Assembly: GCF_002239585.1 (NCBI RefSeq)
Contig: NZ_NDFH01000003.1
Location: forward strand, 868,001 to 932,000
Origin: Psychromonas sp. CD1
GTDB taxonomy: Bacteria > Pseudomonadota > Gammaproteobacteria > Enterobacterales > Psychromonadaceae
Length of the DNA: 64,000 nt
Direction of reading: 5' to 3'
Position 1 is the stretch's first letter; the number at the start of each line of letters is the position of its first letter. A program made the position numbers and the translations under genes. Below the pieces are notes generated by a model. That model was not told where the DNA came from. It was given only the letters and a program-made list of their open reading frames with translations, and did not search any database. Shown one piece after another: positions 31,464 to 32,529 of this stretch.

Positions 31464-31515
31464 ATAATTTTCCTAATAAATATAATAAATAATAATCTGT
31501 AAAAGTAAGCCATAA

Positions 31516-31944
31516 AATACTACTCCGGCAATTGTACGTGTTGCTGTTCGTGATGACTTGGGGCGTTCTTATGCAACGGGTAAGAGAAAAGATGCGGTTG
31601 CACGTGTTTGGATCCGTCCTGGTTCGGGTAAAGTAACGATTAACGGTCGTGAAATGAACAAGTATTTTGCACGTCCTGTGTTGCAAATGGTACTTGCGCA
31701 GCCGTTTTCTGTTGCAGGTGTAACTGGTGAATTTGATGTGATGGCTACGGTCAAAGGCGGCGGATTATCTGGTCAAGCTGGTGCGGTAAAACACGGTATT
31801 TCCAAAGCTTTGCAACTTTATGAACCTACCTTGCGTCCGGCCTTAAAGGCCGCTGGTTTCTTAACACGTGATGCACGTGTTGTTGAACGTAAAAAAGTTG
31901 GTCTACATAAAGCACGTAAACGTCCACAATTCTCAAAACGTTAA
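31516..31944 (+). pseudogene. rpsI: 5'-truncated chimeric ribosomal protein S9 gene
   Basis: An S9 reading frame is open from just after a TAA at 31513. The residues before TTG 31558 ([19 protein letters not shown]) look like the linker of alphaproteobacterial S9, which has a long N-terminal extension; no in-frame ATG or GTG and no ribosome site precede them. The body ([56 protein letters not shown]) reads as Rhodobacterales-like, while the last 20 or so residues ([19 protein letters not shown]) are gammaproteobacterial. It is therefore a chimera with no evident start, on the opposite strand from sspA, and cannot be the normal functional copy as read. Confidence 0.8.
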
Positions 31945-32100
31945 CCCCACGTTACAAGAAAGTTTTTTTCCCAAAACTTTTTGTGTGCTGGCATAGGCTA
32001 TTCGAAGGGGTAGGTTTGCCGGACTTTGTCGTGTGAACCTCAACAATTGAAGACGTTTGGGTGTTCACCAACGTGTAACTATTTATTGGGTAAGCTTTTA
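31945..32100 (+). promoter_or_regulatory. E. coli-like rplM leader
   Basis: These 156 bases between the S9 stop and rplM resemble, from memory, the E. coli rplM 5' leader, including TATTTATTGGGTAAGC just before the ATG. In E. coli L13 represses its own operon through the leader region. The similarity of non-coding DNA to a distant genus is unexpected. Confidence 0.5.
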
Positions 32101-32529
32101 ATGAAAACTTTTACAGCTAAACCAGAAACCGTAAAACGCGACTGGTATGTTGTTGACGCGACCGGTAAAACTCTGGGCCGTCTGGCTACTGAACTGGCTC
32201 GTCGCCTGCGCGGTAAGCACAAAGCGGAATACACTCCGCACGTAGATACCGGTGATTACATCATCGTTCTGAACGCTGACAAAGTTGCTGTAACCGGCAA
32301 CAAGCGTACTGACAAAGTGTACTATCACCACACCGGCCACATCGGTGGTATCAAACAAGCGACCTTTGAAGAGATGATTGCTCGCCGTCCTGAGCGTGTG
32401 ATTGAAATCGCGGTTAAAGGCATGTTGCCAAAAGGCCCGCTGGGTCGTGCTATGTTCCGTAAACTGAAAGTTTACGCTGGAACTGAGCATCAACATTCTG
32501 CACAGCAACCACAAGTTTTAGACATCTAA
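32101..32529 (+). CDS. rplM: Ribosomal protein L13, E. coli-like with host-like tail
   Basis: This encodes a full-length 142-residue L13 of the large ribosomal subunit. Residues 1-126 read as identical to E. coli L13 as I recall it, and codon use is enterobacterial: leucine is almost always CTG, proline CCG, arginine CGT/CGC, unlike the TTA-rich neighbours. From about base 32480 the text returns to AT-rich host-like codons and the protein ends [24 protein letters not shown] element precedes the ATG; an in-frame extension to 32026 is not credible. rpsI should follow rplM but does not. Either recent transfer by recombination or an assembly/contamination chimera explains this. Confidence 0.9.

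What the first reader, a model, noticed from the sequence alone, without database searches (positions are those of the whole stretch)
31514..32529. Foreign, mosaic rpsI-rplM pair in the wrong order and on the wrong strand
Seen: an S9 frame without a start whose body looks alphaproteobacterial (Rhodobacterales-like) but whose last ~20 codons look gammaproteobacterial, followed by an rplM leader and gene with CTG/CCG-rich enterobacterial codon use whose last ~16 codons revert to AT-rich host style. Known: gammaproteobacteria have rplM-rpsI-sspA-sspB on one strand; here sspA-sspB are minus while S9 and L13 are plus and inverted in order. Inference: the switch points fall in conserved coding stretches, as expected when reads from contaminants (E. 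coli, a low-GC Rhodobacterales) are joined to host reads. The natural alternative is repeated homologous replacement of ribosomal genes.
Basis: partly seen in the sequence, partly recalled or inferred. Interest (0 to 1): 0.85.

Follow-up and report, generated by a model that had tools for sequence, protein, structure and literature searches.

The report
Contaminant-built ribosomal gene patch, assembly error
A one-kilobase stretch of this deep-sea Psychromonas genome that seems to carry two ribosomal-protein genes is a patchwork of E. coli, Rhodobacterales-like and host pieces, most likely left by faulty gap closing, so it is a data error rather than biology and it weakens claims of gene loss at this spot.

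Summary
Window 31490-32529 stands where a close relative carries about 8 kb between sspA and pyk (petC-petB-petA, a ferritin-like gene, rpsI, rplM, zapE). It holds a Rhodobacterales-like S9 body (94/108 residues; best of four genus relatives 47/93), a host-type S9 tail ending at the stop codon, 534 bases identical to E. coli (rplM leader plus gene), and a host-type L13 tail ending at the stop codon. The family searches find no other rpsI or rplM in the assembly. Size and contig number match the published bin CDP1, whose gaps were closed by PCR on metagenomic DNA, T-vector cloning, Sanger reads and manual linking (PMC5893861). Three other places in this assembly hold cloning-vector sequence around Enterobacter-like DNA, at breaks where the relative has about 8-18, 16 and 39 kb between the matching flanks. 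The patch itself holds no vector, so the exact step that made it is inferred.

The parts
30831..31463 (-). host sspA; host-like sequence continues to 31489
   Evidence: part of a colinear match to G010 (27556-31489, 78% identity)
31490..31515 (.). left joint: bases between the host sspA upstream region and the S9 frame, source unassigned
   Evidence: outside the G010 match; among the 25 best of 80 Rhodobacterales loci no DNA match begins before 31537
31516..31851 (+). S9 body, Rhodobacterales-like; no ATG/GTG start, possible TTG start at 31558
   Evidence: 94/108 aa to L024 against 47/93 to the best of four genus relatives; best DNA relative L026 Amylibacter ulvae 76.9%; starts
31852..31944 (+). 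S9 3' end of host type, ends exactly at the stop codon
   Evidence: 87-88% to G010/G022 over 93 bases; last 51 bases identical to G010
31944..32477 (+). E. coli rplM leader and gene body, identical over 534 bases
   Evidence: codon outlier +6.9 sd
32478..32529 (+). L13 3' end of host type, ends exactly at the stop codon
   Evidence: 32476-32530 identical to G010; 16/16 residues
32529..34033 (+). host pyk with its upstream region; colinear host sequence resumes
   Evidence: G010 match restarts at 32529, 80% identity to 37501

Best explanation
The stretch 31490-32529 is an artefact of genome assembly and gap closing. Two true host contigs, one ending upstream of sspA and one beginning upstream of pyk, were joined through about 1 kb made of contaminant pieces (a Rhodobacterales S9 and E. 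coli rplM) fused to host-type S9 and L13 ends. The host's own rpsI and rplM, and possibly the neighbours that a relative carries between sspA and pyk, would lie in the part that was not recovered. Shown: the kinds of DNA in the patch, the joints, the 8 kb absent relative to a relative, and vector plus Enterobacter-like DNA at three other places of the same assembly. Inferred: that G000 is the published CDP1, that this patch came from the PCR-clone-Sanger-manual-link step (a mis-join of the short-read assembly is a sub-case, see first rival), and that intact host copies exist outside the assembly.
For: 534 bases at 100% to E. coli, 157 of them upstream of the ATG, while host flanks differ from the nearest relative by about 20%. 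Three kinds of source in 1 kb. The family searches find one rpsI and one rplM in the assembly, both here. About 8 kb present in G010 is absent here and not found elsewhere in G000 by DNA, apart from a 43-base match on C1. G000 has 3 contigs and 1,688,234 bases; CDP1 has three contigs and 1,688,241 bp, made with PCR on metagenomic DNA, pMD18-T cloning, 'manually linked' reads, eight gaps closed. Vector sequence next to Enterobacter-like rmuC (96.3%) and sbcC (97.9%) at C3:214.4-216.0 kb and 444.6-445.7 kb, and the rmuC insert again with vector at C3:1179.4-1180.5 kb. At these breaks G010 has about 8-18, 16 and 39 kb between the matching flanks.
Against: No vector or primer sequence was found in the window, unlike at the three other places: no BLAST hit to two vector backbone stretches, none of six motifs, no copy of the 26-mer. 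So this joint is not proven to be a clone read. The host-type tails end exactly at their stop codons and the E. coli piece begins where transcription should start, which random mis-joining does not predict. An S9 of 128 aa could be read from a TTG, so the genes are not certainly dead. No reads were available to test coverage.
Confidence: 0.95

Rival explanations
1. Sub-case of the artefact: a mis-join by the short-read assemblers (MEGAHIT, then SPAdes with pooled mapped reads) rather than a cloned PCR product; conserved stretches of contaminant and host r-protein genes shared k-mers.
For: Two switch points lie at matching places inside S9 and L13; reads of six metagenomes that mapped to the draft were pooled and re-assembled; the patch holds no vector.
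Against: Two joints share almost nothing: one base at S9 stop / E. coli leader, two at L13 stop / pyk upstream (judged with G010 as stand-in for the host). At the L13 switch the E. coli L004 match ends at 32477 and the four genus matches start at 32476-32483; one of the five E. coli records listed matches to 32480. That is far below the smallest MEGAHIT k of 21. The host's own lost sequence could share more, so this is not excluded.
Confidence: 0.3
2. Genuine horizontal replacement of rpsI and rplM in a reduced symbiont genome.
For: No other copies of either gene found in the assembly; a TTG start would give an S9 of ordinary length; the organism was described as having a reduced genome.
Against: 100% identity to E. 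coli including the leader, three kinds of source in 1 kb with two joints of one or two shared bases, absence of the neighbouring 8 kb, vector contamination at three other breaks of the assembly.
Confidence: 0.015
3. Sub-case of the artefact: the pieces derive from RNA. cDNA of E. coli rplM mRNA and of S9 mRNA entered the closure, since the same study made amplified cDNA.
For: E. coli identity starts at the seventh base after a TATAAT, where +1 is expected (start site inferred, not looked up); host-type tails end at stop codons; cDNA amplification is described.
Against: The pyk-side joint lies about 90 bases upstream of the pyk start and need not be transcribed; the closures were made on metagenomic DNA according to the paper.
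Confidence: 0.06

Closest known systems
Vector and enterobacterial contamination in Sanger-closed genome gaps
   Same: Cloning-vector sequence and Enterobacter-like DNA stand at three other breaks of the same assembly; the patch here holds E. coli chromosomal DNA.
   Different: No vector was found in the patch itself; it also holds Rhodobacterales-like and host-type pieces fused in frame.
rplM-rpsI cluster near petABC and sspA-sspB, as in the genus relatives G010 and G022
   Same: Both genes are present next to sspA.
   Different: Genes lie on the opposite strand and are chimeric; the DNA of petABC and zapE of G010 was not found in G000.
Chimeric contigs in metagenome bins
   Same: Pieces of different organisms joined at conserved genes.
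   Different: Two of the joints share only one or two bases.

Membership tests
assembly / gap-closing artefact | DNA identical to a common laboratory contaminant in an otherwise distant genome | tested here: met
   534 bases 100% E. coli L004; 31944-32481 matches 5375 of 5426 E. coli genomes at 99% or more
assembly / gap-closing artefact | Break in synteny with host sequence missing at the place | tested here: met
   about 8 kb of G010 absent between 31489 and 32529; not elsewhere in G000 by DNA except 43 bases
assembly / gap-closing artefact | Independent signs of faulty closure in the same assembly | tested here: met
   vector plus Enterobacter-like DNA at 3 other places
assembly / gap-closing artefact | Vector or primer sequence in this very patch | tested here: not met
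   no BLAST hit of two vector stretches and none of six motifs in the window; no exact copy of the 26-mer
assembly / gap-closing artefact | Read coverage breaks at the joints | not testable with these tools
   no reads at hand
functional rplM-rpsI operon | Both genes complete with starts | tested here: inconclusive
   L13 has its ATG; S9 has no ATG/GTG near its head but a TTG at 31558 would give 128 aa
functional rplM-rpsI operon | Order rplM then rpsI on the strand of sspA-sspB, as in relatives | tested here: not met
horizontal gene transfer | Whole block found in related genomes | tested here: inconclusive
   24 genus genomes searched, the own one included; the hits listed on the block are native-like L13 (76-80%) and the S9 tail, none spans the block; the list was cut

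The most novel reading that the evidence does not exclude
A gut symbiont really carries in-frame S9 and L13 chimeras, built from Rhodobacterales and E. coli genes with host tails, as its only copies of two essential ribosomal proteins.
Probability: 0.015. Interest if true: 0.9.

Novelty: not a real feature. Interest (0 to 1): 0.2.

Why it matters
As biology it is most likely nothing. As data quality it matters: the assembly that matches a published genome-reduction study holds at least four faulty junctions in the parts examined, each where a close relative has 8 to 39 kb between the matching flanks, so genes absent at those places cannot be called lost on this assembly alone. The rpsI and rplM of this genome should not be used in trees or for placement by marker genes.

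Tried and rejected
Rejected: natural replacement (see rivals). Tried without result: Rfam scan of 30400-33000 found no match at E<=1. A consensus promoter scan of E. coli L004 2850-3200 found no promoter-like site, so the transcription start is my inference from the TATAAT alone. A literature search for the rplM start site listed 9 papers, none opened. GC alone is a poor guide: host guaB reaches 0.527 and an sdaA-like gene 0.51; the guaB stretch has no E. coli match and the 20 kb around the sdaA-like gene match E. coli only at 75-85%. A fifth codon window, C2:139058 (+4.5 sd), lies in a TonB-receptor-like ORF and was not pursued. Megablast of window 1-25000 found no E. coli match and 32482-57481 only an mnmA match at about 75% in 10 of 5426 genomes; window 25001-31463 and 57482-64000 were tested by the codon scan only.

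Earlier reports: two searches listed 7 and 2 papers. Of these I saw passages of PMC9044967 and PMC8216301, which do not speak of contamination of CDP1 in what I saw; the others were not opened except PMC5893861. I make no claim that the problem is unreported.

Extent: 864,000 of 1,688,234 bases (window included) were scanned by codon use and 8,000 more were fetched. The rest was searched only with the vector fragment and the 26-mer, so four bad places is a lower bound.

Full report
What is there. The S9 frame runs from 31516 to the stop at 31942-31944. The codon before it is TAA; the usual start codons in the part checked are a TTG at 31558 and an ATG at 31654. From the TTG the ORF has 128 aa, close to the 129 aa of the relative G010, so 'no start' holds for ATG and GTG only. 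The body is Rhodobacterales-like: 94 of 108 residues identical to L024 and 95 of 107 to L026 (Amylibacter ulvae), against 42-47 of 93-94 in four genus relatives and 45 of 93 in E. coli; 12 loci were compared. The best DNA match is 76.9%, so the donor species is not identified. The last 30 residues fit the host genus (27-28 of 30) better than E. coli (26 of 30) or Rhodobacterales (23-25 of 30), and the last 51 bases equal those of G010.

From 31944 to 32477 the sequence is identical, 534 of 534 bases, to E. coli L004, from 157 bases before the rplM ATG into the gene. The query 31944-32481 matches 5375 of 5426 E. coli genomes at 99% or more. The last 16 residues of L13 are of host type, 16 of 16, against 13 of 16 in E. 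coli, with 32476-32530 identical to G010.

What should be there. In G010 the order is sspB, sspA, petC, petB, petA and a ferritin-like gene on one strand, one gene on the other strand, then rpsI, rplM and zapE on the first strand, then pyk on the opposite strand (gene names by my reading of the translations). G022 keeps rpsI and rplM on the strand of sspA too. Host sequence is colinear with G010 up to 31489 and again from 32529, so about 8 kb of G010 corresponds to about 1 kb here. That 8 kb finds in G000 only the chimeric L13, the S9 tail and a 43-base match on C1 that corresponds to bases just downstream of G010 rpsI. Distant homologues would be missed by this DNA search. The family searches give one L13 and one S9 in the assembly, both here.

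Where the genome comes from. G000 has 3 contigs and 1,688,234 bases. PMC5893861 (seen: outline with abstract, Results part 1 of 2, the TMAO section, Discussion, Methods part 1 of 2, the gap-closing section, and passages) describes Psychromonas CDP1 with three contigs, 1,688,241 bp and GC 36.9%; the 464 kb first sampled here have 36.7%. That they are the same assembly is an inference, but a strong one. There, 11 contigs were ordered by comparison with other Psychromonas genomes, adjacent contig ends were amplified from metagenomic DNA, products were cloned in pMD18-T, Sanger-sequenced and 'manually linked', closing eight gaps. The paper gives 99.3% completeness on 139 genes; the genome tool here gives 79.91.

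Other faulty places. A codon scan of 864 kb (45,001 windows of 50 codons) put first our L13 (+6.9 sd), then C3:215108 (+6.8) and C3:444702-445227 (+6.3 to +6.7); the next was +4.5. Both other places hold cloned inserts: polylinker and lacZ-region vector sequence (98.0% over 349 bases and 89.7% over 233) beside DNA like Enterobacter hormaechei rmuC (96.3%) and sbcC (97.9%) in plasmid records, the only collection searched for these besides E. coli. At C3:214.5 kb there is one more insert, amino-acid-permease-like, whose source was not found. The vector fragment also finds C3:1179447, where the rmuC insert stands again with vector on both sides (97.6% over 336 bases). A 26-mer stands at both ends of the rmuC inserts and of the sbcC insert, one end of the latter with one mismatch; a copy with one mismatch at its first base lies in host DNA at C3:7110, so it looks like a PCR primer designed on host sequence. 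The GTCGACGATT and ATCTCTAGAGG edges are, from recall, those of pMD18-T. Between the matching flanks G010 has about 8 kb (to a paralogous receptor gene in the opposite orientation) or 18 kb (to the next colinear match) at the first place, 16 kb at the second and 39 kb at the third.

Conclusion and limits. The patch most likely belongs with these faulty closures, or is a mis-join of the short-read assembly. It contains no vector or primer motif, so its exact origin is not shown. Two features remain unexplained: both host-type tails end exactly at their stop codons, and E. coli identity begins at the seventh base after a TATAAT, where transcription would be expected to start. I had no reads and make no claim about how the pieces came to be chosen.

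Noticed in passing
L147:14400-16040 (G000 C3:214400-216040): Cloning-vector sequence around two inserts, one Enterobacter-like rmuC and one amino-acid-permease-like of unknown source, between an rsmI-like gene followed by RNase P RNA-like sequence and a chemotaxis-receptor-like gene (names by reading).
   Followed up: yes
L153:4580-5720 (G000 C3:444580-445720): Vector polylinker and lacZ region around Enterobacter-like sbcC, after a ribose-type ABC permease gene; the vector part is only about 90% identical, as in a poor read end.
   Followed up: yes
L191:7400-8460 (G000 C3:1179400-1180460): The same rmuC insert as at C3:215 kb, with vector on both sides, so one insert stands at two places of the assembly.
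   Followed up: yes
L142:7110-7135 (G000 C3:7110-7135): Host copy (one mismatch at the first base) of the 26-mer that bounds the inserts, upstream of an aspartate-ammonia-lyase-like gene; probable primer site.
   Followed up: partly
L159:11183-11282 (G000 C3:1251183-1251282): Run of 100 N inside contig C3; either a gap in the record or a withheld stretch.
   Followed up: no
G000 as a whole: Published completeness 99.3% (139 genes) against 79.91 given by the genome tool.
   Followed up: no
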